From assembly GCF_014696345.1 (NCBI RefSeq), contig NZ_JACJPY010000039.1:1-37488 (forward strand): 37,488 nt of DNA. Direction: 5' to 3'. This DNA comes from Pseudanabaena cinerea FACHB-1277 (GTDB taxonomy: Bacteria > Cyanobacteriota > Cyanobacteriia > Pseudanabaenales > Pseudanabaenaceae). A program made the translations under genes and the position numbers. Below the pieces are notes generated by a model. The model saw only the letters and a list, made by a program, of their open reading frames with translations, made no database searches and was not told the DNA's origin. The first letter of the stretch is position 1. The number at the start of each line of letters is the position of its first letter. Shown here one piece after another: positions 6,568-22,210 of the stretch.

Positions 6568-8166
6568 CTAACCAATATGAACTGGGGTTTTAATGCCCCT
6601 GACCTCATAGGCGGCAGTTTCTAACAAAGAAACTCCTGTCATTTCTTCAGGTTGGGGCAGTTGTAAAATCTGCAAAATAGTGGGAGCTATGTCGGCGAGG
6701 CGACCGCCTGACTGGCGCAACTGCACATCGGCTCCATGACCATAGATTTTGCGTTTTTCTCCTTCCACCAAAATAAATGGTACAGGGTTACTAGAATGCG
6801 CTGTCCAAGGATTACCCTGCTCATCCCACATATATTCAGCATTGCCATGATCGGCGGTAATGAGGGCTGTACCTCCTGCTCTAGCGATACTCGCCAGCAG
6901 ATTACCCAAACAGCGATCAACGTGTTCTAGGGCTTTGACGGTGGCGGCAAAGTTGCCAGTATGTCCCACCATGTCGGGATTGGCATAGTTGATCACGATT
7001 AGGGAGTAAATGCCCTTAGCGATCGCGGCGGCAGCTTTTTCGGTCACTTCTGTCGCCGACATGGCGGGTTCTTGATCATAAGTGGAGACTCTGGGGCTAT
7101 TCACCAACATCCGATCATCCCCCTCACTTGCTTCCTCCATGCCGCCATCAAAAAAGTAAGTGACATGGGCATATTTCTCGGTTTCGGCTAGACGCAGTTG
7201 CTTGAGTCCATGGCGAGAAACCACCTGACCGAGTAAATTAGTCAGATTTTGGGGCAGAAAGGCAACGGGTACGGGCAGGGAACTGTCGTACTGCGTAAAA
7301 GTGGCATAGGCAAGGGGCGTAATTAGTTCGCGCTCAAAGCCTGAGAAATTTGGGGCAACGAGGGCTTGGGTAATTTCACGGGAGCGATCGGGGCGGAAGT
7401 TAAAGCAAATTACGCCATCATTAGGAGCGATCGCGCCTGAAGCGATGCGGGTAGGCGGCAGAAATTCATCGGTAATGTTTTCCTTATAGGCGGCGGTAAG
7501 AACATCGGCGGCGGCGAGTTCGCTGGTAATTTGATTGTTAGTCATTACTTCGTATGCTTTCTGCACCCGATCCCAGCGCTTATCGCGATCCATCGCAAAA
7601 TAACGCCCGCTCATGGTGACGATGCGACCAACGCCAATCTTGTTGAGATGTGCTTGTAACAGCTTAATGAAATTGATCCCTGAGTGGGGGAGGGTGTCGC
7701 GTCCATCGGTAATGACATGAATACATACATCGCTGATTTGCTGCACCTTGGCGAGATCCAGCAATCCCAAAAGATGATCAATGTGGGAATGTACGCCACC
7801 ATCGGAGCAGAGTCCGATTAGGTGCAGTTTGCCATCGGTGGCTTTGACCTTTTCACAAACTGTAACTAAGGCTGGGTTTGACAATAGCGAACCATCATCG
7901 ACAGCATCAGAAATTCTAACTAATTCTTGAGGGACGACCCGACCTGCACCGATGTTTAAATGACCAACCTCTGAGTTGCCCATTTGCCCCTTTGGCAAAC
8001 CAACGTCTTTCCCTGAGGCTTGGAGGAGAGTTTTGGGGTAAGTACTCCACAGGCTATCCATGACGGGAGTATTTGCTGCGGCGATCGCATTGCCCTCGGT
8101 ATCTTCTCTATGTCCCCAGCCGTCCAGAATGATCAAAACTAGTGGAGAAACAGACCCCATTTGCAT
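6568..8166 (-). CDS. gpmI: 2,3-bisphosphoglycerate-independent phosphoglycerate mutase
   Basis: From the ATG at 8166 (AAGGAA about 9 nt upstream) the protein has 532 residues, the usual size. LIILDGWGHRED gives the first metal ligand, and MGNSEVGHLNIGAGR carries the phosphorylated Ser65. Later motifs CSDGGVHSHIDH, VITDGRDT, GRYFAMDRDKRWDR, NYANPDMVGHTG and ITADHGNAE match the Mn-dependent alkaline-phosphatase-superfamily enzyme. It interconverts 3- and 2-phosphoglycerate in glycolysis. A longer frame from 8223 lacks a ribosome binding site and is less likely. Downstream of it the strand carries gmk and parA. Confidence 0.95.
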   Translation of the reverse strand: MQMGSVSPLVLIILDGWGHREDTEGNAIAAANTPVMDSLWSTYPKTLLQASGKDVGLPKGQMGNSEVGHLNIGAGRVVPQELVRISDAVDDGSLLSNPALVTVCEKVKATDGKLHLIGLCSDGGVHSHIDHLLGLLDLAKVQQISDVCIHVITDGRDTLPHSGINFIKLLQAHLNKIGVGRIVTMSGRYFAMDRDKRWDRVQKAYEVMTNNQITSELAAADVLTAAYKENITDEFLPPTRIASGAIAPNDGVICFNFRPDRSREITQALVAPNFSGFERELITPLAYATFTQYDSSLPVPVAFLPQNLTNLLGQVVSRHGLKQLRLAETEKYAHVTYFFDGGMEEASEGDDRMLVNSPRVSTYDQEPAMSATEVTEKAAAAIAKGIYSLIVINYANPDMVGHTGNFAATVKALEHVDRCLGNLLASIARAGGTALITADHGNAEYMWDEQGNPWTAHSSNPVPFILVEGEKRKIYGHGADVQLRQSGGRLADIAPTILQILQLPQPEEMTGVSLLETAAYEVRGIKTPVHIG

Positions 8167-8432
8167 AAAAGACAGTTCCTTGTTAAGTACAATCTCACCC
8201 TTGCTACTTGGCTTGAATACCATTGGATAGCATTTAGGACGAATTTACAGATTATTTTACGGATTATTTTAAACAATACTTGGCAATTCGTTCGATCGCA
8301 ATGTATCCCAGAAAACTTTTAATGGTTTACAAAAAAACTTTGAATATTACAACGGCTAAATTTTTTGTCTGATGTGATTTTTAAGCGAATGAGCCTGATT
8401 TTGCCAATTCTGGCATCACTGTTAGAAATATA

Positions 8433-9404
8433 ATGATAAGAAATTTCTGTAAGATATTTAAAAAAGTCTTGTATTTTTACAAAAGTAAAGCAGCCTCCAA
8501 GTGTCCCATATCTATGACAAAACGCTTTTCAATTCCGACTACTTGGAATACGTCAGACCATTGCAATAAATTGTTCGAGCTATGGGATCAAATTTCTCAA
8601 CTGCCATTAAAAAACAATCTACACATTGAATTTGATTTTCATGAATGTAAATTCTTAAGTCATAATGGAGTTGCTTTTCTCGGTGGGCTAGCACATTTCA
8701 TAGAGGATAACGGAGGAAAGGTCATATTTATGTGGAATACACTTGATCCCAAGATACGCATGAACTTAGCCCAAAATGGTTTTCTGAATTGTTTTGGTGA
8801 AAGTCAAGAATCTTGGGATGGCAATTCTATTCCTTATCGAAGAGACTCCCAACAAGATAAGTCAGTGATTATGGATTATCTTTTAGACAAATGGCTGGGT
8901 AGGGGATGGCTCAGGATTAGTCCGCAATTGCAAGATGTAATAGTAGGTCAGGTATCTGAAATCTATGGTAATGCTTTTGAGCATAGTCAGTCCGAAATTG
9001 GAATATTTAGTTGTGGGCAACATTATCCAACAAAAGGATGTCTAGAGCTTTCAGTAATTGACTTTGGCGTTGGCATCCCCACTAAAGTTAGATCTTTACC
9101 TAAAAATTCATGCTTGTCATCAGAAGACGCTTTAAAATGGGCGCTTAAGGCTGGCACTAGTACAGTCCCTGATATGTGCAGAGGCTTAGGGCTAAGTCTG
9201 CTCCAAGAATTTGTCAGATGTAATCAGGGTATTCTCAGAATTTTTAGTAATGACATTTATGTCAAGATCGAACATAATGGGATTAAATATAAAAAACAAA
9301 AAGTTAATTTTTCGGGAACACTCATTAATATCACCCTGAAATGTAGTGAGACTTATTACTGCCTTGATTCTGGAGTTTCAGAAAATAGCAGCATCAGATT
9401 TTAA
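8433..9404 (+). CDS. STAS-like N-terminus plus GHKL (HATPase_c) ATPase, first gene of a three-gene unit
   Basis: The 323-residue protein has two parts. Residues ~45-125 resemble a STAS-type fold (IEFDFHECKFLSHNGVAFLGGLAHFIE, then GGKVIFMW). Residues ~150-290 hold GHKL ATPase boxes: N-box EIYGNAFEHS with Asn180, G1 box VIDFGVGIP with Asp210, and G2 box RGLGLSLLQEF (250-260). No phospho-accepting His box, transmembrane or sensor domain is seen, so it is not a classic sensor kinase; it resembles anti-sigma/RsbW-SpoIIAB-like serine kinases. The start is uncertain; ATG at 8514 (MTKRFSIP) is an alternative because the first 27 residues are basic and lack family features. The next gene begins 16 nt later. 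Confidence 0.75.
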   Translation: MIRNFCKIFKKVLYFYKSKAASKCPISMTKRFSIPTTWNTSDHCNKLFELWDQISQLPLKNNLHIEFDFHECKFLSHNGVAFLGGLAHFIEDNGGKVIFMWNTLDPKIRMNLAQNGFLNCFGESQESWDGNSIPYRRDSQQDKSVIMDYLLDKWLGRGWLRISPQLQDVIVGQVSEIYGNAFEHSQSEIGIFSCGQHYPTKGCLELSVIDFGVGIPTKVRSLPKNSCLSSEDALKWALKAGTSTVPDMCRGLGLSLLQEFVRCNQGILRIFSNDIYVKIEHNGIKYKKQKVNFSGTLINITLKCSETYYCLDSGVSENSSIRF

Positions 9405-9419
9405 TTAGGGAGAATAATC

Positions 9420-9770
9420 ATGCTTTATAAGGTATACGACATTACAGGCAAGTTTGCTACTGATTGTGATAGTGGACAAGAGTTATATGATCTTATCTAT
9501 CCTCAGTTAGAGCAAGGTAAATCTGTAGAGCTAGACTTTACGGATGTTGGAGTATTTGCTTCTGCTTTTTTTAACTATGCGATCGGTCAACTTTTACAAC
9601 ATAAGATTGTTGTTGACCAACTGAACCATCTGTTGACTTTCAAAGCTCTCTCTCCTATGGGGCATAACGTCCTCAAGCGAGTTGTTGACAATGCAAAGCA
9701 GTACTACGCCGATCCGCAGTCTAGACAGGCTGTGGATACTGTACTTGAGGAGTATGCTGCTAGCCTCTAG
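9420..9770 (+). CDS. STAS-like DUF4325 protein
   Basis: The 116-residue protein follows GGGAG at a proper distance. It has the small alpha/beta pattern of STAS-like DUF4325: a strand and helix (GQELYDLIYPQLEQGKSVEL), DFTDVGVFASAFFNYAIGQL (the loop and helix at which SpoIIAA-type proteins carry the phospho-Ser), then a C-terminal helical part. Ser48 equivalents cannot be fixed by eye; the FASAFFNYAIG segment is the likely partner-binding site. It lies between the GHKL ATPase and the PIN gene. A partner-switch role (bound or phosphorylated by the ATPase) is inference from context. Confidence 0.75.
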   Translation: MLYKVYDITGKFATDCDSGQELYDLIYPQLEQGKSVELDFTDVGVFASAFFNYAIGQLLQHKIVVDQLNHLLTFKALSPMGHNVLKRVVDNAKQYYADPQSRQAVDTVLEEYAASL

Positions 9771-9772
9771 TT

Positions 9773-10471
9773 ATGCCATCAATTCAACTCAATGTCCAAG
9801 CAGAAGTAATTGACATTACAACTGATACCCCACAGCCAAACGAATCTTTTTTGGTAGATACCAATGTTTGGCTGTGGCAGACTTATTCCAGATTTTCTGT
9901 GCCACATCTTGCCCGTTCTGATTTTGCTAGATTCTCAGATCCAAGCCCTCAGAGAGCAAGAAATGAAGCGGAGAAAGTACAAATTAAAATTGGTAAGTAC
10001 ATTCCCTATATTAAAAAAGCCCGTATTGCTGGGGCGAAAATCTTTTACTCAGGTTTAATTCTTGCAGAACTTGCTCATCTAATAGAAAAGACCGAATATG
10101 AGATCTACAAGAATAAAAATCGTCAACCATCGTTAACGCTCAAGCAATACAGACATACTTTGCCCAGCGAACGAGCTAATGTTATTGCTGAAGTTCAGTC
10201 GGTTTGGAGTCAGGTAGAAGGTCTCGGAATATCGGCTGACTTCACTATAAATAGTGAGGCAACACAGGCATTTCTGGCTAGATTTCAAACTCAGGCTCTA
10301 GATGGATACGATCCGTTTCTTCTTGAAGCTATCAAGTACTCAGTATCTGGACAAATTCAAGTTATTACGCATGACATGGACTATGTAACCGCAGATAATA
10401 TTTTAGTATTTACTGCTAACGGTGAGTCTCTCTCAGAAGCACAAAGACTTGGCAAGCTGCTGGTAAGATAG
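9773..10471 (+). CDS. PIN-domain nuclease-like protein, third gene of the unit
   Basis: The 232-residue protein begins 2 nt after the preceding stop, so translation is probably coupled. PIN-fold acidic residues are visible: SFLVDTNVWLW (Asp29), GLILAELAHLIE (Glu99), DGYDPFLLEA (Asp180, with Glu185) and VITHDMDYV (Asp201, Asp203). It is longer than typical VapC toxins (~130-140), with an inserted region at ~40-90 (SDPSPQRARNEAEKVQIK) and a Lys/Arg-rich stretch at 107-135. PIN proteins are Mg/Mn-dependent RNases. No small antitoxin is next to it; the two upstream proteins may supply the control. Confidence 0.8.
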   Translation: MPSIQLNVQAEVIDITTDTPQPNESFLVDTNVWLWQTYSRFSVPHLARSDFARFSDPSPQRARNEAEKVQIKIGKYIPYIKKARIAGAKIFYSGLILAELAHLIEKTEYEIYKNKNRQPSLTLKQYRHTLPSERANVIAEVQSVWSQVEGLGISADFTINSEATQAFLARFQTQALDGYDPFLLEAIKYSVSGQIQVITHDMDYVTADNILVFTANGESLSEAQRLGKLLVR

Positions 10472-10570
10472 CTCTCGCGATCATAGCAATCATTTAGTCT
10501 CTAGATCTTTATAGCGATCGCAGTCTCAAATGTATGATAGGTAAACTGGATTGTAAGATTTCTCTAACGA

Positions 10571-12400
10571 ATGGCGTTAATAGTTCAAAAATATGGTGGC
10601 TCATCTGTAGCCGATGCCGATCGCATTAAAGCAGTGCGCGATCGCATCAAACGCACAGTTGATGCAGGTAATCAAGTGGTGGTCGTGGTTTCAGCGATGG
10701 GCAAAACTACGGATGGTCTAGTTGCCCTCGCCAATGCAGTTTCAAATTCGCACCTGAGCCTGTCGACAATGGCGGCGCAAGAGCGCGAGATGGATTTGCT
10801 GCTAGCGACTGGTGAGCAGGTGACAATTGCTCTTTTGAGTATGGCTTTGCAAGCGGTGGGACAGCCCGCGATCGCCATGAATGGTTCACAGGTGCGCGTG
10901 GTCACTGAGGCAAATCACACCCGTGCGCGAATTTTGTATGTAGAGCCAGAGGCAATTCAGGCGGCATTAAATTTGGGTAAGGTCGTGATTGTGGCAGGTT
11001 TTCAGGGTGTGGCAGTCGATCCCCAAACAGGGAAACCGAGTACAGAGATTACAACTTTGGGGCGTGGCGGTTCTGATACTTCGGCTGTGGCGATCGCGGC
11101 GGCTATCAAAGCTGATATTTGCGAGATCTATACCGATGTACCAGGCATTTTAACCACTGATCCCCGCATCGTGCCGAAGGCGCAACTGCTCACCGAGATT
11201 ACCTGTGACGAGATGCTAGAGCTTGCTAGCTTGGGAGCAAAAGTATTGCACCCACGTTCTGTGGAAATTGCGCGGAACTTTGGGGTAAAAATGTGTGTGC
11301 GATCAAGTTGGCTGGAGGATGCAGGCACGGTAATCACGGCTCCTCGTCTGAGTACGGGCAATCTCGAAGCCTTGGAGGTCAATCGCTTTGTGGAGGGTAT
11401 ATCCATTGATTATGACCAAGTAAAAATCGCCCTCTTGCAGGTTCCCGATCGCCCAGGCATCGCCTCACAGTTATTTCAATCTCTAGCATCGCAGGGGGTG
11501 AATGTGGACTTGATTATTCAAGCTGTGCAGGAAACTGAAGGGGTGAATGATATCGCCTTTACAATCCCCCAAAGTCATTTGCAGATGGCGGAGGTGGTCA
11601 GCCGCAGTTTAGAGATTGGTGCAAGGTCGGTAACGGTAGATTCTAACGTTGCCAAAATTAGTATTGTCGGCGTGGGCATGATTGGTCGTCCGGGGGTGGC
11701 GGCACAGATGTTTAGCGCCCTTGCCGATGCGGGGATCAATATCCAAATGATCTCCACCTCAGAAATAAAAATTAGTTGTGTAATTGCCGCAAATGATGGC
11801 GAAGCGGCGATCGCTGCCATGCAGACCGCCTTTAATGTGCCAGTGCAGTCTTCCCATCGTGCCTGTGAATTTTCGCAATCCACAGATGATCACCATGCAC
11901 CAGTGTGCGGCGTGGCACTAGATCGGCATCGTGCCAGAATTGCCGTGGAGCAGGTTCCTGATCGCCCAGGCATGGCTGCCGAGATCTTTGAGCAGTTGGT
12001 GGCGCAAAATATCAGCATTGATACGATCGTCCAGTCTCAGTCTGATCGCGATGTTAATGAAATTGCCTTCACGGTGGCGATCGCGGATGTTGACAAAGCC
12101 GAAACTGCTCTCAAAAATTATGCCCCAATTTTGGGCTATGGCGCTGTCACTAGCGATCGGCATATCTGCAAAGTTAGTATTGTCGGCGCAAATATGGTTC
12201 ATCAGTCAGGGATCGCGGCGCGAATGTTTAGCGCCTTAGCCGAAGCAGACATTAATATTGAGATGATTGCCACCTCGGAAATCAAGGTCAGTTGTGTTGT
12301 GCGTGAACATCAAGCCGAATCTGCTCTCAAACTGATTCACCAAGAGTTTGGACTATCAGGCGATCGCGCCATTGAAGTTCCTAGCGCCACCAAACCTTGA
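10571..12400 (+). CDS. lysC: Aspartate kinase with four ACT domains
   Basis: The 609-residue protein starts MALIVQKYGGSSVAD, the aspartate-kinase N-terminal motif, followed by LLATGEQVT, TLGRGGSDTSAVA and the DVPGILTTDPRIV region. After the ~245-residue kinase domain come two tandem pairs of ACT domains. Each pair begins VPDRPG(I/M)A and contains a VGxxM-(R/H)-(S/P)GxAA-MFSALA-A-INI-MI-TSEIK segment. The duplicated regulatory block is the form seen in cyanobacteria and explains the length beyond the usual 400-450 residues. It catalyses the first step to Lys, Thr, Met and Ile and is expected to be feedback-inhibited by Lys and/or Thr. It appears monocistronic. Confidence 0.95.
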   Translation: MALIVQKYGGSSVADADRIKAVRDRIKRTVDAGNQVVVVVSAMGKTTDGLVALANAVSNSHLSLSTMAAQEREMDLLLATGEQVTIALLSMALQAVGQPAIAMNGSQVRVVTEANHTRARILYVEPEAIQAALNLGKVVIVAGFQGVAVDPQTGKPSTEITTLGRGGSDTSAVAIAAAIKADICEIYTDVPGILTTDPRIVPKAQLLTEITCDEMLELASLGAKVLHPRSVEIARNFGVKMCVRSSWLEDAGTVITAPRLSTGNLEALEVNRFVEGISIDYDQVKIALLQVPDRPGIASQLFQSLASQGVNVDLIIQAVQETEGVNDIAFTIPQSHLQMAEVVSRSLEIGARSVTVDSNVAKISIVGVGMIGRPGVAAQMFSALADAGINIQMISTSEIKISCVIAANDGEAAIAAMQTAFNVPVQSSHRACEFSQSTDDHHAPVCGVALDRHRARIAVEQVPDRPGMAAEIFEQLVAQNISIDTIVQSQSDRDVNEIAFTVAIADVDKAETALKNYAPILGYGAVTSDRHICKVSIVGANMVHQSGIAARMFSALAEADINIEMIATSEIKVSCVVREHQAESALKLIHQEFGLSGDRAIEVPSATKP

Positions 12401-12498: not shown

Positions 12499-13179
12499 AT
12501 GTCCTCCGATAAATCCAGCGATCGACCTAAGCCTCAGCATCCCCCCTCATTGCCAGAACAAGAGCCAAAGCCCTCGCTCAAGAATTTCTTGGTAGACAAT
12601 CTACCAACGGTGGCAGTGGCGGTTTTGTTGGCTGTGGGGGTGCGGATTTTTATCGCGGAGCCACGCTTTATTCCGACCACATCCATGGAGCCGACCCTGT
12701 TGGTAGATGATCGGCTAATTATTGACAAGATCTCCATGCGCTGGCAAAAACCTGAACGTGGCGAAATAATTGTTTTTAACCCGCCCGTTAATCCTGTTGT
12801 ACCTGATGCTTCTAAGGTATACATTAAGCGTGTAATTGGTTTACCAGGCGATCGCATCAGTATTCGAGATGGCAAAGTTTTCATTAATGATCTCCCCCTC
12901 AATGAGCCTTACATCGCTGAGCCAATTAAATATACTTTGCCCACCGCAGATGATGCCCTCTGTTCTGGCTGTTTTCGCCCTAGGGATATTCAATCGCGTG
13001 ATGGACAATCCTATTTCACTGTACCCAACAATCAATATTGGGTAATGGGAGACAATCGCAACAATAGCCTGGACTCCCATGCTTGGGGATTTTTGCCAGA
13101 AGAAAATTTAGTGGGTCGGGCAGTGTTTCGTTACTGGCCTCTTGATAATCGTGCTGGTGTATTGGCACGTCCGCAGTAG
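12499..13179 (+). CDS. lepB: Signal peptidase I (first of a tandem pair)
   Basis: The 226-residue protein has a Pro-rich cytoplasmic leader (1-30), one transmembrane segment (~34-53), then the family boxes: FIPTTSMEPTL with catalytic Ser62, DRLIIDKIS, YIKRVIGLPGD with general base Lys110, and MGDNRNNSLDSHAWGF. It cleaves signal peptides at the outer face of the plasma and thylakoid membranes. A 15-residue insert with two cysteines (ALCSGCFRP, ~154-160) distinguishes it from the next gene. The second copy starts 19 nt after its stop, so both are likely cotranscribed. Confidence 0.93.
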   Translation: MSSDKSSDRPKPQHPPSLPEQEPKPSLKNFLVDNLPTVAVAVLLAVGVRIFIAEPRFIPTTSMEPTLLVDDRLIIDKISMRWQKPERGEIIVFNPPVNPVVPDASKVYIKRVIGLPGDRISIRDGKVFINDLPLNEPYIAEPIKYTLPTADDALCSGCFRPRDIQSRDGQSYFTVPNNQYWVMGDNRNNSLDSHAWGFLPEENLVGRAVFRYWPLDNRAGVLARPQ

Positions 13180-13198
13180 GTTTTATTAGGTTTTATTC

Positions 13199-13774
13199 AT
13201 GTCAACGCAAACACAAACTGATTCTTCTGTAGTTACAAAATCTTGGTGGCAAAAATACGGCGATACGATCACCATCTTTGCGATCGCTTTGGTGGTTGCC
13301 ACGTTATTGCGGACTTTTGTAGTGGAGCCGCGTTTCATTCCCTCTGGCTCAATGGAGCCGACTTTGCAAGTGGGCGATCGCATTCTCGTTGACAAGATTT
13401 CGGCAAATTGGCAACCACCCCAATATGGCGATATTCTCATTTTTTATCCACCTGCCTCTTCCGCCATTGACGACAACAGCAAAGCCTATATCAAGCGCTT
13501 GATTGGTATGGGCGGCGATCGCATTGCCATTGTTAACGGTAAGGTCTATCGCAATGGCGTACCCCTCGATGAGCCTTACATTGCCGAGCCACCTTTTTAC
13601 AATATGCGGACGGTGACAGTACCTCAGGGCTATTACTGGATGATGGGCGACAATCGCAATCACAGCAATGATTCCCATGTGTGGGGTTTTTTGCCGCAGC
13701 AAAATGTAATCGGTAAGGCTGTATTTAGGTTTTTCCCCTTAGGCGATCGCCTAGGCGCGATCGATAGAAGCTAG
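13199..13774 (+). CDS. lepB: Signal peptidase I (second of a tandem pair)
   Basis: The 191-residue protein has one membrane segment (~23-41) and the same catalytic boxes: FIPSGSMEPTL with Ser51, YIKRLIGMGGD with Lys99, and MGDNRNHSNDSHVWGF. It lacks the cysteine-bearing insert and the long Pro-rich leader of the upstream copy. The pair resembles the multiple signal peptidases of cyanobacteria, where copies can be specialised for thylakoid or plasma membrane substrates; which does what cannot be told from sequence. It ends with a HIP1-dense stretch inside the coding region. Confidence 0.93.
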   Translation: MSTQTQTDSSVVTKSWWQKYGDTITIFAIALVVATLLRTFVVEPRFIPSGSMEPTLQVGDRILVDKISANWQPPQYGDILIFYPPASSAIDDNSKAYIKRLIGMGGDRIAIVNGKVYRNGVPLDEPYIAEPPFYNMRTVTVPQGYYWMMGDNRNHSNDSHVWGFLPQQNVIGKAVFRFFPLGDRLGAIDRS

Positions 13775-13821
13775 AGCATTGCATCCAACTCTCTAAATAC
13801 TAAACTATAGTATTCTCCAAT

Positions 13822-14568
13822 ATGTCCCATCAAACTTCAGGTAATCAAAAAAACTGGCTTTACTTTGCCCTTGGCTCAGGCTCAATGCTAGTTATTGGTG
13901 CAGTTGCCTTAACTGCATTTAACTTCTTGGGTAAATCTGCACAGTCACAGATAGCAGGAACTTGGAAAGTAGAAGCCAATGATGCTCCCGCAGGCACGCC
14001 AGCGATCACGATTTTGATTGACAATGACGGTAAAATCACGGCGCTAAACCCTAGTAACGAAAAAGAAACGCTCGAACTGGGCAAAATTACCAGAGTATCT
14101 GATGTTGCAATTTTGCCTGAGGATGCCAATGTGCAGGCTAATCCCTCTGCCAATCAAGCCAACAAAGCTAGACAATCAGAAGCCAAAACCTATGTGGGTG
14201 CTATGAATAGAGGGCAGCAAGCGCATTTTTTAGAAAGAAATAGATGGGGGAAAACAATCGACGAAATTGGCATTGGCATTAAGTCAGAATCGGAGGACTA
14301 TCGATATACAATAAAAATTGTTGACTCAATTAAAACGATCAACACTAAAAATTATGTGGGTATAGCTGTAAATACAGCGATCGCAAAAAAAGATGGACTC
14401 AAGAGCTATGTTGGTGTCGTTTATCTCAGCAATTCTGGAGCGGCGGCTGAGCTTTCTTCTTTAGGGATTCTTTGTGAATCTCAACAGCCCTCCACTAAGG
14501 AGAGCGGCTTACCAGAATTTGATGGTAAACAAGTTAAATGTCCCAATGATTACGTGTCGTTACAATAA
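13822..14568 (+). CDS. Type IV pilin-like G/H family protein
   Basis: The 248-residue protein has an N-terminal membrane segment (~13-33). A lipocalin-like stretch follows (AGTWKVEANDAPAGTPAITILID), and then SEAKTYVGAMNRGQQAHFLERNRW with IDEIGIGIKSESEDYRYTI. The last block matches the conserved part of cyanobacterial pilin-like G/H (Slr1046-like) proteins, which otherwise follow a type IV pilin N-terminus. Here the pilin Gly-Phe-Thr-Leu-xE cleavage motif is absent, so it is probably membrane-anchored or exported by another route rather than assembled into pili. It lies 47 bp after lepB2. Confidence 0.7.
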   Translation: MSHQTSGNQKNWLYFALGSGSMLVIGAVALTAFNFLGKSAQSQIAGTWKVEANDAPAGTPAITILIDNDGKITALNPSNEKETLELGKITRVSDVAILPEDANVQANPSANQANKARQSEAKTYVGAMNRGQQAHFLERNRWGKTIDEIGIGIKSESEDYRYTIKIVDSIKTINTKNYVGIAVNTAIAKKDGLKSYVGVVYLSNSGAAAELSSLGILCESQQPSTKESGLPEFDGKQVKCPNDYVSLQ

Positions 14569-14573
14569 TTACA

Positions 14574-14622
14574 AGCGAAGATGTTAAAAGTGTTGCTTTG
14601 CGACGCTTTCAACATCTTTGCT
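14574..14622. terminator. Long near-perfect hairpin after the pilin-like gene
   Basis: AGCGAAGATGTT-A-AAAGTGTTGC pairs with GCGACGCTTT-C-AACATCTTTGCT around a TTT loop: about 22 pairs with three G.T wobbles and one A.C mismatch. It starts 6 bp after the stop. A probable terminator or processing hairpin; its GC-NNN-GC apex resembles other hairpins in the window. Confidence 0.6.
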
Positions 14623-14708
14623 AGATTTAGGTATGAGCGCAAAGCACTCTAGGATTGCTATATGATGTATAGCGACAAAGCAATCAAGTCTTTAGCAAAT
14701 TTTTTAGA

Positions 14709-15935
14709 ATGCCCTCAAGTATCGATCCTCAAACTGCTCCTCAAACACAGGCGACCCTCTTAGAAAGAGGTGTCGTTGAAATATTCCCTAATAGTGAATC
14801 GGAAAACCTGAGCGATCGCCTCGCTAAAAGGGATCGCCCCCTGCGGATCAAATTGGGGATCGATCCCACCCGTCCTGACTTGCATCTAGGTCATACAGTG
14901 GCATTGCGGAAATTGCGTCAATTTCAGGATGCAGGACATAAGGCAGTTTTAATTATTGGTGACTTTACCGCCCAGATTGGCGACCCCACAGGACGCTCTG
15001 AGGCACGCCCCCGCCTCACGCCCGATGAGGTGGCTTACAACGCCGAAACCTATTTAGAGCAAGCCAAAAAAATCTTAGATTTCTCCAGCGATCGCTTCGA
15101 GTTGCGCCGCAATGGTGAATGGTTAAACAAACTAGACTTGCAGGATATTATTAACTTGCAAGCCAGTATGACCGTGGGACAGATGCTTGCCAAAGAAGGA
15201 TTTAGCGATCGCTACGACAAGGGCAATCCCATTTATCTCCATGAATTTCTCTATCCTCTATTGCAAGGCTATGACTCCGTAGCGATCGCTGCCGATGTGG
15301 AGCTAGGCGGCACTGATCAAAAATTTAATATTTTGGTGGGACGCGACCTGCAACTAAAAGATTCCCAGCGTCAGGGCAAACCTGCTCAATTTGGACTATT
15401 GCTACCTTTGCTAGTGGGCTTAGATGGCGTGCAGAAAATGTCCAAATCCCTCGGCAATTATGTGGGGCTTACCGATGAACCTTTGAGTATGTATTCTAAA
15501 CTCGAAAAAGTCCCCGATGCCCTAGTTGATAAATATTTTGAGTTACTCACCGACATCGATCTGACCACCCTGCCCACAAACCCACGGGAAAAGCAAAAAC
15601 AACTGGCTCTAGCGATCGTTGGTCAATATCACAGCCCCGAAGCCGCCCTGCAAGCTCAGCAGGATGCCGAAAAGATCGTGCTGGCTGGCAATACCGATGA
15701 TCTTGGCGATATCCCTGAATTTGATCTCACTCAAATTAATTTCCCTGCCCCCTTGCATTACCTAGTCAAAGCATCAGGACTCTGCAAAAGCAACAGCGAG
15801 GCCCAAAGCCAAATCAAAAATGGCGCAGTCAAACTTGATGGCGAAAAACTAGGCGATCGCACCTTTAATGACCGCACCGAACTTGTGGGCAAAGTTTTAC
15901 AGGTCGGTAAAAAGAAATTTTTGCGACTACTCTGA
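14709..15935 (+). CDS. tyrS: Tyrosyl-tRNA synthetase
   Basis: The 408-residue class I synthetase has the HIGH-type motif HLGH at residues 59-62, [14 protein letters not shown], the specificity region [26 protein letters not shown] and KMSKS at 243-247. The C-terminal ~65 residues form an S4 RNA-binding domain ([27 protein letters not shown]). The layout is that of the TyrZ-type bacterial enzyme. It charges tRNA-Tyr. The gene is followed by a convergent hairpin terminator. Confidence 0.95.
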
Positions 15936-19325: not shown

Positions 19326-19988
19326 ATGAGTATAGAAACCACAGAGAAACAAGTAATCTCAAAGCAGAGAGTGACCGATCATGGTGAGGTGTTTACTAAC
19401 CAGCGTGAGGTGAAAGCGATGCTAGATTTGGTAAAGCAGGAAACTGAGCGGATTGAGTCGAGATTTTTGGAGCCAGCCTGTGGAACTGGTAATTTTTTGG
19501 CGGAGGTTTTGGATCGAAAATTGCAAGTTGTGCAGATGCGCTATGGCAAGGTACAGCTAGAGTATGAACGGAATGGGGTTTTGGCGATTTCTTCGATCTA
19601 TGGAATTGATATTTTAGAAGACAATGTGCAGGAATGTCGCGATCGCCTATTCAATATATTTGATCAAAAATATACGGAGCTTTTTGGAGATTTAGCGAAT
19701 GATGATTGTCGGGAGGCGGTACGCTATATTCTCAGCCGCAATATTATTCATGGCGATGCGTTGACTTTAAAAACGGTGGGCGATCGTCCTGAGCCGATCA
19801 TTTTTTCGGAATGGTCGCCTGTAAATGGCAGCATGATCAAGAGGCGCGATTTTAGTTTTAAGGAGTTATTGCACCATGAGAGCATGATGGAGTTGCCTCT
19901 GTTTGCGGATACGGGTGAGGATGTGTTTATCCCGACTCCGATTGAGGATTTTCCTGTGGTGCATTTTTTGAGAGTAGGATGTATGTAG
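19326..19988 (+). CDS. Methyltransferase-like protein with SAM motif I but no NPPY
   Basis: The 220-residue protein has GEVFTNQREVKAMLDLV, typical of the N-terminus of DNA adenine methyltransferases, then FLEPACGTGNFLAEVL (SAM-binding motif I, residues 47-62) and SSIYGIDILEDNVQECRDRL (motif II). There is no (N/D)PP(Y/F) motif IV, and the C-terminus ends with WSPVNGSMIKRRDFSF and FPVVHFLRV. Similar proteins are found beside Eco57I-type methyltransferases and GIY-YIG helicases, so it may be a full-length accessory subunit rather than a truncation. It is the first gene of the restriction-like island. Confidence 0.65.
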   Translation: MSIETTEKQVISKQRVTDHGEVFTNQREVKAMLDLVKQETERIESRFLEPACGTGNFLAEVLDRKLQVVQMRYGKVQLEYERNGVLAISSIYGIDILEDNVQECRDRLFNIFDQKYTELFGDLANDDCREAVRYILSRNIIHGDALTLKTVGDRPEPIIFSEWSPVNGSMIKRRDFSFKELLHHESMMELPLFADTGEDVFIPTPIEDFPVVHFLRVGCM

Positions 19989-20043
19989 ATAGCGGCGCTT
20001 TGTGTTGCCTGTCCTACATATCACTGACCAAACGAGGTTATTT

Positions 20044-20280
20044 ATGTTACTTGAAGAAATTACGGAAAAAGTGGTTTTGCTGTCGCCTAGTGATCTTTTA
20101 AGCTTAATGGAGATTATTGTTTCAGCACTAAAGACAAAACAAAATTCTGAGCAGCAAGGCTATGTAACAAAATTGCGCCAGAGTAAGTTTATTGGTTGTT
20201 TTGATGGTGATCCTGATTTAGCTGCTAACTCAAAAGCGAATTTTCAAAAAGTTATGGACGAAAAACATGATCCTCGCTGA
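20044..20280 (+). CDS. VapB-type antitoxin candidate
   Basis: The 78-residue protein starts at an ATG with CGAGG about 8 nt upstream. It has a leucine-rich helical N-terminus (EEITEKVVLLSPSDLLSLMEIIVSAL) and an acidic-basic C-terminus that would contact the toxin (GDPDLAANSKANFQKVMDEK). The stop overlaps the next gene's start by 14 nt, the usual coupling of a VapBC pair. The N-terminal DNA-binding fold is not certain. The extension to 20002 shown by a GTG-like upstream start is unlikely. Confidence 0.6.
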   Translation: MLLEEITEKVVLLSPSDLLSLMEIIVSALKTKQNSEQQGYVTKLRQSKFIGCFDGDPDLAANSKANFQKVMDEKHDPR

Positions 20281-20686
20281 TACTGGTTTCTTCATTGCTT
20301 TGGGTAATAAGCAAGATCGTTTTCATAAAAGTGCAGTCCAAGCTGTTACTAATCTAAATGAATTATTGATTACAACCTATCCTGTAGTTACGGAAACTAG
20401 CTATTTACTGGCAAGAGATGCGGGATTAGTAGTGCAGTTTAATTTTTTAGAAGAAGTTGCTAATGGCTCTTTTTCTATTTTTGACTTTCAGAGTCATCAC
20501 ATAACCCGCATGGTTGAGCTAATGAGACGCTATGCTGATTTACCTATGGATTTTGCCGATGCTTCTTTGGTAGTTTTAGCAGAACATTTGAATGAGGGGA
20601 GAATTTTAACTAGCGATCGCCGTGATTTCAGTATTTATCGATGGAATAATACAAAGTCTTTTGAAAATTTGTTAGTACTAGAGTAG
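20267..20686 (+). CDS. VapC-type PIN-domain toxin
   Basis: The 139-residue protein has the PIN signature: MILADTGFFIAL (Asp5), VVTETSYLLA (Glu), DLPMDFADASLVVLAE (Asp, Asp) and RILTSDRRDFSIYRW (Asp). All four acidic positions look intact. Such toxins cleave tRNA or rRNA when free. It overlaps the antitoxin gene by 14 nt, and the next methyltransferase gene begins 12 nt after it, so the pair may be transcribed with the restriction island and act as an addiction module or abortive arm. Confidence 0.8.
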   Translation: MILADTGFFIALGNKQDRFHKSAVQAVTNLNELLITTYPVVTETSYLLARDAGLVVQFNFLEEVANGSFSIFDFQSHHITRMVELMRRYADLPMDFADASLVVLAEHLNEGRILTSDRRDFSIYRWNNTKSFENLLVLE

Positions 20687-20698
20687 CAATGTATAAGT

Positions 20699-22210
20699 AT
20701 GCTTAAAAGTAATTACAATCCTGATGTGTTAACTTGTTTGGCGAATTTGAGCAATGATGAGGTGTTTACGCCGCCGAGTTTGGTGAATCAGATTTTGGAT
20801 TTGTTGCCTGCGGATTTATGGTCAAATCCTGATGCAAAATTTCTTGATCCTGTGTGCAAGTCGGGGGTGTTTTTGCGGGAGATGGCGAAGCGGTTGATTG
20901 TGGGGTTGGAGCCTGTGTTTCCAGATTTGCAGGAACGGGCTAATCATATTTATAAATATCAGCTTTTTGGGTTGGCGATTACGGAGTTGACGGGGTTGTT
21001 GTCGCGGCGGAGTGTGTACTGCTCGAAGGTGGCGAATGGGAGGTATTCGGTATGTTCGGATTTTGAGGATGAGCAGGGTAATATTGTTTATGCGCGTGTG
21101 GAGCATGATTGGCGCGGCGGCAAGTGTGGGTTTTGCGGCGCGAGTCAGGAGGTCTATGAGCGCGGCGATGCGTTAGAGTCTTATGCTTATCAATTTATCC
21201 ATGCTGATGATCCTAGTTGTTTTTTTAAGAATATGAAGTTTGATGTTATTGTCGGTAATCCTCCTTATCAGTTAGAAGATTCTGGCTTTGGTAGAAGTGC
21301 TAGTCCTATCTATCATAGATTTGTAGAACAGGCGAAAAAACTAAATCCTAGATATCTATCCATGATTATTCCTGCCCGTTGGTACTCTGGTGGAAAGGGA
21401 TTAGATGAGTTTAGAGAAGAAATGCTTAATGATAATAGAATTAGGTATATTGGAGACTTCCCAGAAGCTATTGATTGTTTTCCGGGGGTACAGATAAAAG
21501 GAGGAGTTTGTTACTTTCTTTGGGATAGAGATAATGAAGGCAATTGCAAGGTTATTACTTTAAGAAAAGGTCAAGTTGTTTCTGAAATGGAAAGACCTTT
21601 GTTAGAGAAAGATTGTGATACTTTTATTAGATTCAACGAAGCTATATCAATTCTAAACAAAGTCAAGGCTTTTAATGAACCATCCTTAAAGAGTCTAATA
21701 AGCTCAAGTAAACCATTCGGGTTAAGAACTAATTTTAAAGGTAAAAAATCTACGTTTCCTAACGCTGTAACTCTCTATCAAAATGGAGGAATAGGTTATG
21801 TAAAGCATGAAGAAATTTTATCTAATCATTCTATTATTCCAAATTTTAAAGTGCTAATTGCTCCTTTAGGTAGTGGAAGCGATTCATTCCCCCATCCAAT
21901 TCTAGCTAAACCATTTGTTGTACCTCCAAATAGCGCTTGTACTGAGACTTATCTTGTAGCTGGAGTTTTTGATAATGAAAAAGAAGCGTATAACTTAGCA
22001 ACATATTTAGCTACTAAATTTTTAAGATTTCTAGTTTTGCTTAACAAGCCAGCCCAACACGCTACAAGTAAAGTATATACTTTTGTTCCAATACAAGACT
22101 TTTCAGAATCTTGGACAGATGAGAAACTTTATAAAAAATATGGATTAACTGCGGAAGAAATTGCGTTTATTGAGTCGATGGTGCGATCGATGGAGTTAGA
22201 TAATCCTTAA
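20699..22210 (+). CDS. Eco57I-type N6-adenine DNA methyltransferase
   Basis: The 503-residue protein has DEVFTPPSLVNQILDL, a motif I region KFLDPVCKSGVFLREM (residues 48-62, with Lys54 where Gly is usual) and motif IV VIVGNPPYQL (NPPY at 187-190). The SPIYHRFVEQAKKLNPRYLSMIIPARWYSGGKGLDEFR block is typical of this restriction-modification family. An insert before NPPY has GKCGFCG (Cys143, Cys146) and two other cysteines (Cys108, Cys119), possibly binding zinc. The C-terminal half (~320-480) has the look of a target-recognition domain. It would methylate adenine in the recognition sequence; with only one nuclease-type partner downstream, the locus resembles a type II/III hybrid. Confidence 0.85.
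   Translation: MLKSNYNPDVLTCLANLSNDEVFTPPSLVNQILDLLPADLWSNPDAKFLDPVCKSGVFLREMAKRLIVGLEPVFPDLQERANHIYKYQLFGLAITELTGLLSRRSVYCSKVANGRYSVCSDFEDEQGNIVYARVEHDWRGGKCGFCGASQEVYERGDALESYAYQFIHADDPSCFFKNMKFDVIVGNPPYQLEDSGFGRSASPIYHRFVEQAKKLNPRYLSMIIPARWYSGGKGLDEFREEMLNDNRIRYIGDFPEAIDCFPGVQIKGGVCYFLWDRDNEGNCKVITLRKGQVVSEMERPLLEKDCDTFIRFNEAISILNKVKAFNEPSLKSLISSSKPFGLRTNFKGKKSTFPNAVTLYQNGGIGYVKHEEILSNHSIIPNFKVLIAPLGSGSDSFPHPILAKPFVVPPNSACTETYLVAGVFDNEKEAYNLATYLATKFLRFLVLLNKPAQHATSKVYTFVPIQDFSESWTDEKLYKKYGLTAEEIAFIESMVRSMELDNP

What the first reader, a model, noticed from the sequence alone, without database searches (positions are those of the whole stretch)
8433..10471. Three-gene unit: STAS-GHKL ATPase, DUF4325 STAS-like protein and a PIN nuclease
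The sequence shows three tightly spaced genes (gaps 15 and 2 nt). The first joins a STAS-like half to a GHKL ATPase with clear N, G1 and G2 boxes but no histidine kinase phospho-acceptor. The second is a STAS-like DUF4325 protein. The third is a long PIN protein with intact acidic residues. In known partner switches (SpoIIAA/AB, RsbV/RsbW) a GHKL kinase and a STAS protein control a sigma factor. Here no sigma factor is near, and a nuclease takes that place. Inference: an ATP-dependent switch that holds an RNase inactive and releases it on a signal, such as phage or stress. I know of no described system with this exact set.
Basis: partly seen in the sequence, partly recalled or inferred. Interest (0 to 1): 0.78.

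Follow-up and report, generated by a model that had tools for sequence, protein, structure and literature searches.

The report
Cyanobacterial VapKSC kinase-gated toxin operon
These three cyanobacterial genes are a member of VapKSC, a recently described bacterial self-defence switch in which a kinase is thought to release an RNA-cutting toxin from its inhibitor when DNA is damaged or a phage attacks.

Summary
In detail: three same-strand genes (gaps 15 and 2 nt) encode a STAS-half + GHKL ATPase, a DUF4325 STAS protein and a PIN nuclease. 21 of 22 relatives found in genome contigs of several phyla carry all three in the same order. The proposed switch is essentially right but not undescribed: it is VapKSC (Chambers et al., EMBO J, June 2026, PMC13373217). 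The window's STAS and PIN proteins match only Escherichia VapS and VapC (PDB 9z7o) among solved structures at E <= 0.01 (6e-17 and 1.5e-27), and the key residues are present. The site is empty in 19 of 19 inspected genus relatives, so the operon was probably acquired. What may be new concerns the family in cyanobacteria: many loci keep VapS+VapC without an intact VapK; intact VapC was never seen without VapS (21 of 21 evaluable); and VapS Ser48 is lost only where no VapK was found (13 of 45 such loci, 0 of 53 others), a pattern that is borderline once relatedness is allowed for (p about 0.05; sign test not significant).

The parts
8433..9404 (+). VapK: degenerate N-terminal STAS-like half + GHKL ATPase/kinase domain, no HTH match. 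ORF from ATG 8433; possible start ATG 8514 (296 aa)
   Evidence: kinase motifs; AlphaFold2 model, SpoIIAB among the matches; STAS half from homologue
8652..8654 (+). Codon of the VapK aromatic residue (Phe, ORF residue 74) in the position that fits Escherichia VapK F54 / CapK W68, the proposed ssDNA contact
   Evidence: Aromatic in 33 of 33 aligned VapK rows: F16, W13, Y4. Equivalence to F54 inferred from position and context; the Escherichia VapK sequence was not obtained
8958..8984 (+). VapK N box E-I-Y-G-N-A-F-E-H
   Evidence: N and H in 33 of 33 rows, E in 32 of 33
9060..9074 (+). VapK G1 box D-F-G-V-G
   Evidence: Asp in 29 of 33 rows; Asn in the 4 Gastranaerophilales rows
9183..9194 (+). 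VapK G2 box G-L-G-L
   Evidence: Both Gly in 33 of 33 rows
9420..9770 (+). VapS: DUF4325 STAS-like antitoxin with C-terminal extension
   Evidence: PF14213 E 1.6e-14; Escherichia VapS 9z7o_A E 6.3e-17, aligned over residues 10-113
9561..9563 (+). VapS Ser48 codon, predicted phospho-acceptor
   Evidence: S/T in 33 of 33 cyanobacterial loci with intact VapK and in 29 of 29 loci from plasmid, phage, viral and genome contigs
9773..10471 (+). VapC: PIN-domain toxin nuclease
   Evidence: Escherichia VapC 9z7o_C E 1.5e-27; fold model nearest to VapBC toxins; D29, E99, D177, D180, D201, D203 in 73 of 73 intact cyanobacterial VapC
8335..10555 (.). Stretch absent from the gpmI-aspartate kinase spacer of 19 genus relatives (approximate borders of the acquired segment)
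   Evidence: tblastn and blastn against loci L220-L238

Best explanation
The three genes are a cyanobacterial vapKSC operon, a kinase-gated toxin-antitoxin and anti-phage unit. At rest VapS (9420-9770) binds VapC (9773-10471) and its C-terminal helix blocks the PIN site. When single-stranded DNA from damage or phage infection binds between the two halves of VapK (8433-9404), VapK spends ATP to phosphorylate Ser48 of VapS; VapS lets go and VapC cuts RNA, stopping growth. Shown in print for the Escherichia homologue: VapC toxicity, neutralisation by VapS, the VapS2C2 structure, loss of binding and of neutralisation with S48E, and phage protection that needs D28, S48 and F54. Inferred even there: VapK kinase activity, its ssDNA activation and the RNA target. 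For the window copy everything beyond sequence, residue and fold conservation is inference by homology.
For: Gene set, order and strand match the published definition. Window VapS and VapC each have one PDB sequence match at E <= 0.01, Escherichia VapS E 6.3e-17 and VapC E 1.5e-27; family profiles give 1.4e-30 and 1.3e-50. VapK model pLDDT 90.5, GHKL half similar to SpoIIAB. Trio in 21 of 22 genome-contig relatives. VapS Ser/Thr48 in 33 of 33 VapK-intact cyanobacterial loci; PIN acids 73 of 73 and VapK aromatic 33 of 33. VapC-first search: of 22 intact VapC, 21 have intact VapS, 1 is cut by a contig end, none lacks it, whereas of those 21 VapK is intact in 11, not intact in 9 and cut in 1: what an antitoxin and a dispensable trigger predict.
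Against: Nothing here measures toxicity, phosphorylation or phage defence for this copy. VapK itself has no close solved relative (best sequence hit E 0.0079), and the Escherichia VapK sequence was not obtained, so the VapK link rests on gene order, domains and motifs. Four Gastranaerophilales rows (three distinct kinases) of otherwise full trios carry Asn for the G1 Asp. Forty of 72 evaluable VapS loci with intact VapC in the cyanobacterial sample have no intact VapK; two of the forty have under 1000 bp upstream. So kinase gating is not universal in the family. The window copy is not in an evident defence island.
Confidence: 0.88

Rival explanations
1. The unit is mainly a selfish addiction or stress toxin-antitoxin module; VapK tunes it to general stress, and phage defence is incidental in cyanobacteria.
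For: Patchy in the genus (VapC in 3 of 26 genomes), insertion between housekeeping genes, frequent decay, carriage on a plasmid and phages, no evident defence island at the window copy.
Against: The Escherichia homologue gives about 2-log protection against phage Bas42; 103 of 289 published operons lie within 10 kb of a defence gene; the copy in genus member G561 adjoins DUF3780 and DUF499 genes of PADLOC, though its VapK is in two pieces (256 and 42 aa).
Confidence: 0.3
2. A CapK+CapS-type transcriptional switch: the STAS protein is a DNA-binding repressor of an adjacent operon and the PIN gene is a neighbour.
For: Same kinase and STAS domain pairing; CapK and CapS are described in the same paper.
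Against: CapK has an N-terminal HTH and CapS a C-terminal wHTH; the window kinase has no HTH match at E <= 1 and the STAS protein is 116 aa with no second domain matched above cut-off. The PIN gene travels with both across phyla.
Confidence: 0.04
3. A classical sigma-factor partner switch (SpoIIAB/SpoIIAA-like) that by chance lies beside a PIN gene.
For: Similar kinase fold and phospho-acceptor position.
Against: Order with PIN kept in 21 of 22 genome-contig relatives; [quoted passage not shown]
Confidence: 0.02

Closest known systems
VapKSC of Escherichia sp. E4736 (Chambers et al., EMBO J 2026, PMC13373217; VapS-VapC in PDB 9z7o)
   Same: Gene content, order and domain make-up; direct sequence matches for VapS and VapC; phospho-acceptor Ser48, PIN acids, N-terminal tail of VapC.
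   Different: Host belongs to another phylum; VapC is 232 aa, with an insert around residues 45-68 that is poorly modelled and, by eye, also present in genus member G561. Nothing has been tested at the bench.
CapK+CapS regulators (same paper)
   Same: STAS-GHKL kinase and STAS substrate with a conserved Ser.
   Different: CapK has an HTH and CapS a wHTH and represses transcription; no such domain was matched in the window proteins.
VapBC toxin-antitoxin systems
   Same: PIN-domain toxin of VapC-like fold.
   Different: The antitoxin is a STAS protein, not a VapB, and a kinase is present; the published VapS does not displace the catalytic Mg2+.
SpoIIAB/SpoIIAA and RsbW/RsbV partner switches
   Same: GHKL kinase fold and Ser on a STAS partner.
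   Different: Controlled partner is a nuclease; no sigma factor in the unit.

Membership tests
VapKSC | Three-gene operon: STAS-GHKL kinase without HTH, small STAS protein, PIN protein, in that order | tested here: met
   the STAS-like half of the kinase is shown on the Deinococcus homologue
VapKSC | STAS protein homologous to VapS, with Ser/Thr at position 48 and the C-terminal region | tested here: met
   9z7o_A E 6.3e-17, aligned over residues 10-113 of 116; residue 48 is Ser
VapKSC | PIN protein homologous to VapC with intact acidic site | tested here: met
   9z7o_C E 1.5e-27; D29, E99, D177, D180, D201, D203 present
VapKSC | VapK aromatic residue equivalent to F54 at the proposed ssDNA site | tested here: inconclusive
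VapKSC | VapC toxicity, VapS neutralisation, release by Ser48 phosphorylation, phage protection | not testable with these tools
   Bench assays; published for the Escherichia copy only, with direct kinase activity of VapK not shown there
CapK+CapS | HTH on the kinase and wHTH on the STAS protein | tested here: not met
   No HTH family match at E <= 1 in either protein; STAS protein only 116 aa
VapBC | DNA-binding VapB-type antitoxin | tested here: not met
   Partner is DUF4325 STAS-like; no VapB-type match at E <= 1

The most novel reading that the evidence does not exclude
In cyanobacteria VapS has a second life. After VapK is lost, VapS-VapC pairs persist as ordinary two-gene toxin-antitoxins, and some genomes keep a solitary VapS whose phospho-acceptor has become Ala or Pro. 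Such a VapS could not be switched off by any VapK, so it may act as a constitutive immunity (anti-addiction) gene against VapKSC of other elements.
Probability: 0.2. Interest if true: 0.55.

Novelty: new member of a known kind. Interest (0 to 1): 0.36.

Why it matters
It puts a function on a Pfam domain of unknown function (DUF4325 matches VapS; the main text of the VapKSC paper does not use that name), documents a months-old defence system in cyanobacteria and several other phyla, and gives independent evolutionary evidence for its logic: antitoxin present wherever toxin is intact, kinase dispensable. The solitary, apparently non-phosphorylatable VapS genes give a cheap test of the phospho-switch and of toxin immunity.

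Tried and rejected
Undescribed system: rejected after full-text search found VapKSC. Searches for prior description: 'DUF4325' (2 papers; of the Francisella phage paper PMC7924643 I saw passages, of the other the listing), STAS/PIN/GHKL/defence terms, partner switch/PIN/STAS, VapKSC or CapK (186 papers hold one of the terms; among the 15 listed VapKSC occurs only in PMC13373217), PIN/STAS-like/cyanobacteria terms, annotation names. Of PMC13092281 and PMC7159879 I saw passages only; they held no such trio there. Supplements could not be read, so I do not know whether cyanobacteria are among the 289 published operons.

Defence island at this copy: tested on 10 neighbours with PADLOC; only weak matches (ParA-like, guanylate kinase, a methyltransferase-like ORF). 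The adjoining genes 6571-8223 and 10571-12397 and those at 12499-15932 were given to Pfam only.

Tree control for loss of Ser48: the raw count (13 of 45 versus 0 of 53, with 1 locus set aside as cut) is weakened by shared ancestry. One parsimony reconstruction gives 7 losses, all on branches with VapK absent, and 1 regain; those branches are 65.5% of tree length, so p is about 0.05 (a crude estimate). The independent-pair sign test is not significant (median p 0.5). The tree has few columns, 44 of 93 inner branches are open, and its longest-branch row (L198_4261) was not removed.

Rows dropped: of 107 distinct VapS loci (distinct VapS DNA; identical VapS in different genomes merges) 8 with under 85% VapS coverage were dropped before the Ser48 count. 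G048 and G064 copies with identical VapS DNA were merged and scored by the better copy, which hides a shortened VapC in G048. The 16 weakest places (E 5e-9 and weaker) were not fetched for themselves. 'Intact' means at least 85% of the profile in one open frame; 'absent' means no profile match in the flank held (usually 1500-3000 bp). VapC was counted only downstream of VapS: one of the 8 loci scored as having neither partner (second VapS of L198) in fact follows a VapS-VapC pair. One search lists 35 places and returned loci for 30; L083 and L090 are two pieces of one locus.

Sensitivity: the genome-contig scan used two short peptide patterns, so its 22 loci are a lower bound.

Full report
WHAT IS THERE. 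Gene 2 is DUF4325 (E 1.6e-14). Gene 1 has only a weak HATPase_c match (E 0.0022) and gene 3 no PIN match in three libraries, so both needed other evidence. AlphaFold2 models from alignments of relatives are confident (VapK pLDDT 90.5, VapC 89.2). The first matches GyrB best and SpoIIAB among the next (1tid, TM 0.68 on the target, E 3e-4); the listed matches do not show a STAS protein, and the STAS-like first half is taken from the Deinococcus homologue, which passes Pfam's STAS cut-off. The second is nearest to VapC toxins (3zvk, probability 1.00, though E is only 5e-3). The genome holds one copy of gene 1.

DISTRIBUTION. In 386 genomes drawn from the phylum, 22 have a gene 1 match, 27 a gene 3 match and 28 a gene 2 match. 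Three of the 22 (L020-L022, E about 1e-7) match only part of the GHKL domain inside longer frames and are probably other ATPases, and several are broken copies. A scan of species genomes found 22 relatives of gene 1; 21 have all three genes in the same order and strand and 1 runs off its contig. In one of the 21 (L042) the PIN gene is in two pieces, and in another (L051) it is cut by the contig end. By their record titles they include Pseudomonadota, desulfobacterial groups, Bacteroidota, Brocadiaceae, Spirochaetes, Riflebacteria and Gastranaerophilales. The trio is also on Deinococcus gobiensis plasmid P5 (annotated there as ATP-binding, STAS-like and PIN proteins), on an unannotated faecal phage contig, in a streptococcal prophage whose PIN gene is not annotated, and in 4 of 5 viral contigs, the fifth ending inside the locus.

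IDENTITY. Full-text search led to PMC13373217 (EMBO J, 9 June 2026), of which I read the abstract, sections 11-14 and part 1 of 3 of the methods, and passages. It names this operon vapKSC. The window's VapS and VapC have one match each among PDB chains at E <= 0.01, Escherichia VapS (6.3e-17) and VapC (1.5e-27), both of entry 9z7o. The paper's key residues have counterparts: VapS Ser48 is residue 48 here too; the PIN Asp is D29; a Phe stands at the likely F54 position.

RESIDUE CONSERVATION. VapK: N-box Asn 33 of 33, Glu 32 of 33 (the other Asp), G1 Asp 29 of 33, both G2 Gly 33 of 33, aromatic residue 33 of 33 (32 distinct rows). The four G1 exceptions are all Gastranaerophilales. VapC acids: 73 of 73 intact cyanobacterial copies; in 28 others 27 or 28 depending on the position, the gaps being in the broken L042 and the cut L051. 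VapS position 48: Ser or Thr in 29 of 29 loci from plasmid, phage, viral and genome contigs.

EVOLUTIONARY TEST OF THE MODEL. I classified 107 distinct VapS loci from the phylum sample and 217 genomes of one family, 99 with at least 85% of VapS. Searching from VapC so as not to presuppose VapS, 22 of the 30 VapC loci returned are intact; 21 have an intact VapS, 1 is cut by a contig end and none lacks it; VapK is intact in 11, not intact in 9 and cut in 1 of those 21. This asymmetry is what toxin, antitoxin and trigger predict. Position 48 is Ser/Thr in 33 of 33 loci with intact VapK and 20 of 20 with VapK fragments, but Ala, Pro or Arg in 13 of 45 with no VapK match; the remaining locus is cut. 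Eight VapS genes have neither VapK upstream nor VapC downstream and 7 of these have lost Ser48; leaving out the one that follows a VapS-VapC pair, 7 are truly solitary and 6 have lost it, which is about 3 events on the tree. Allowing for relatedness the link to VapK loss is only suggestive (p about 0.05; sign test not significant).

SURROUNDINGS. In the window the operon lies between a phosphoglycerate mutase gene (6568-8223) and an amino-acid kinase gene with ACT domains (10571-12400, aspartate kinase in my reading). In 19 of 19 genus relatives whose flank was returned (26 genomes searched, own included; the other 6 were not inspected) these two genes are neighbours without the operon. Similarity breaks at about 8321-8342 in 18 of them (8223 in L238) and resumes at 10555-10567, with one further short match at 10494-10540 in L237. 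VapC occurs in 3 of 26 genus genomes. G561 and G193 have theirs elsewhere: G561 beside DUF3780 and DUF499 genes known to PADLOC, with its VapK in two pieces; G193 as VapS-VapC without VapK. So the operon appears to be gained and lost often. Its window copy shows no evident defence island.

MECHANISM. Best explanation as stated above: VapS clamps VapC; ssDNA-activated VapK phosphorylates Ser48 and frees it. For Escherichia the clamp, the phospho-mimic release and phage protection are shown; kinase activity, ssDNA activation and RNA target are inferred by its authors too. For the window copy all function is inferred.

VERDICT. Correct and perceptive reading of a real unit whose kind was published in June 2026. 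New member of a known kind. The kinase-less pairs and the Ser48-less solitary VapS genes are the parts I found no mention of in the sections and passages read; they deserve follow-up.

Noticed in passing
L129 4595-4942, L130 2880-3227, L176 2966-3313, L170 3017-3364, L174 2940-3341, L177 2990-3343, L179 2942-3343: Solitary VapS genes with no VapK or VapC match in the stretch held; 6 of 7 have Ala or Pro in place of Ser48 (all but L130). L129 and L130 lie directly beside uvrB.
   Followed up: partly
L198 2590-4590: A VapS-VapC pair (Pro48) followed by a second, Ala48 VapS; the first VapS has a long N-terminal extension.
   Followed up: no
L125, L126, L201-L214: A separate clade of kinase-less VapS-VapC pairs in several cyanobacterial genera that keeps Ser48 although no VapK is found nearby (L203 is cut upstream); a kinase in trans or another role for Ser48 is possible.
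   Followed up: partly
L016, L017, L055, L056: Gastranaerophilales VapK with Asn for the G1 Asp and Thr for the second G1 Gly in otherwise full trios; perhaps weak or dead ATP binding.
   Followed up: no
L029 4735-6579: Phaeobacter plasmid: a distant GHKL relative directly after a gene with a weak HEPN/RES N-terminal match (below cut-off), perhaps another effector under a similar ATPase.
   Followed up: no
L032 3578-4767: Streptococcal prophage with GHKL and DUF4325 genes but no PIN match, near its lysin end.
   Followed up: no
L031 5158-5688: PIN ORF (E 1.4e-21) not annotated in the phage record, beside the integrase; HTH and M78-peptidase genes lie upstream of the trio.
   Followed up: no
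L243 3107-10783: G561 vapKSC flanked by DUF3780 and DUF499 genes and a protein with a weak capP match.
   Followed up: partly
window 19326-22210: ORF 19326-19988 with weak matches to Type II / MmeI-like methyltransferases, followed by three closely spaced same-strand ORFs; possibly a broken restriction-modification gene.
   Followed up: no
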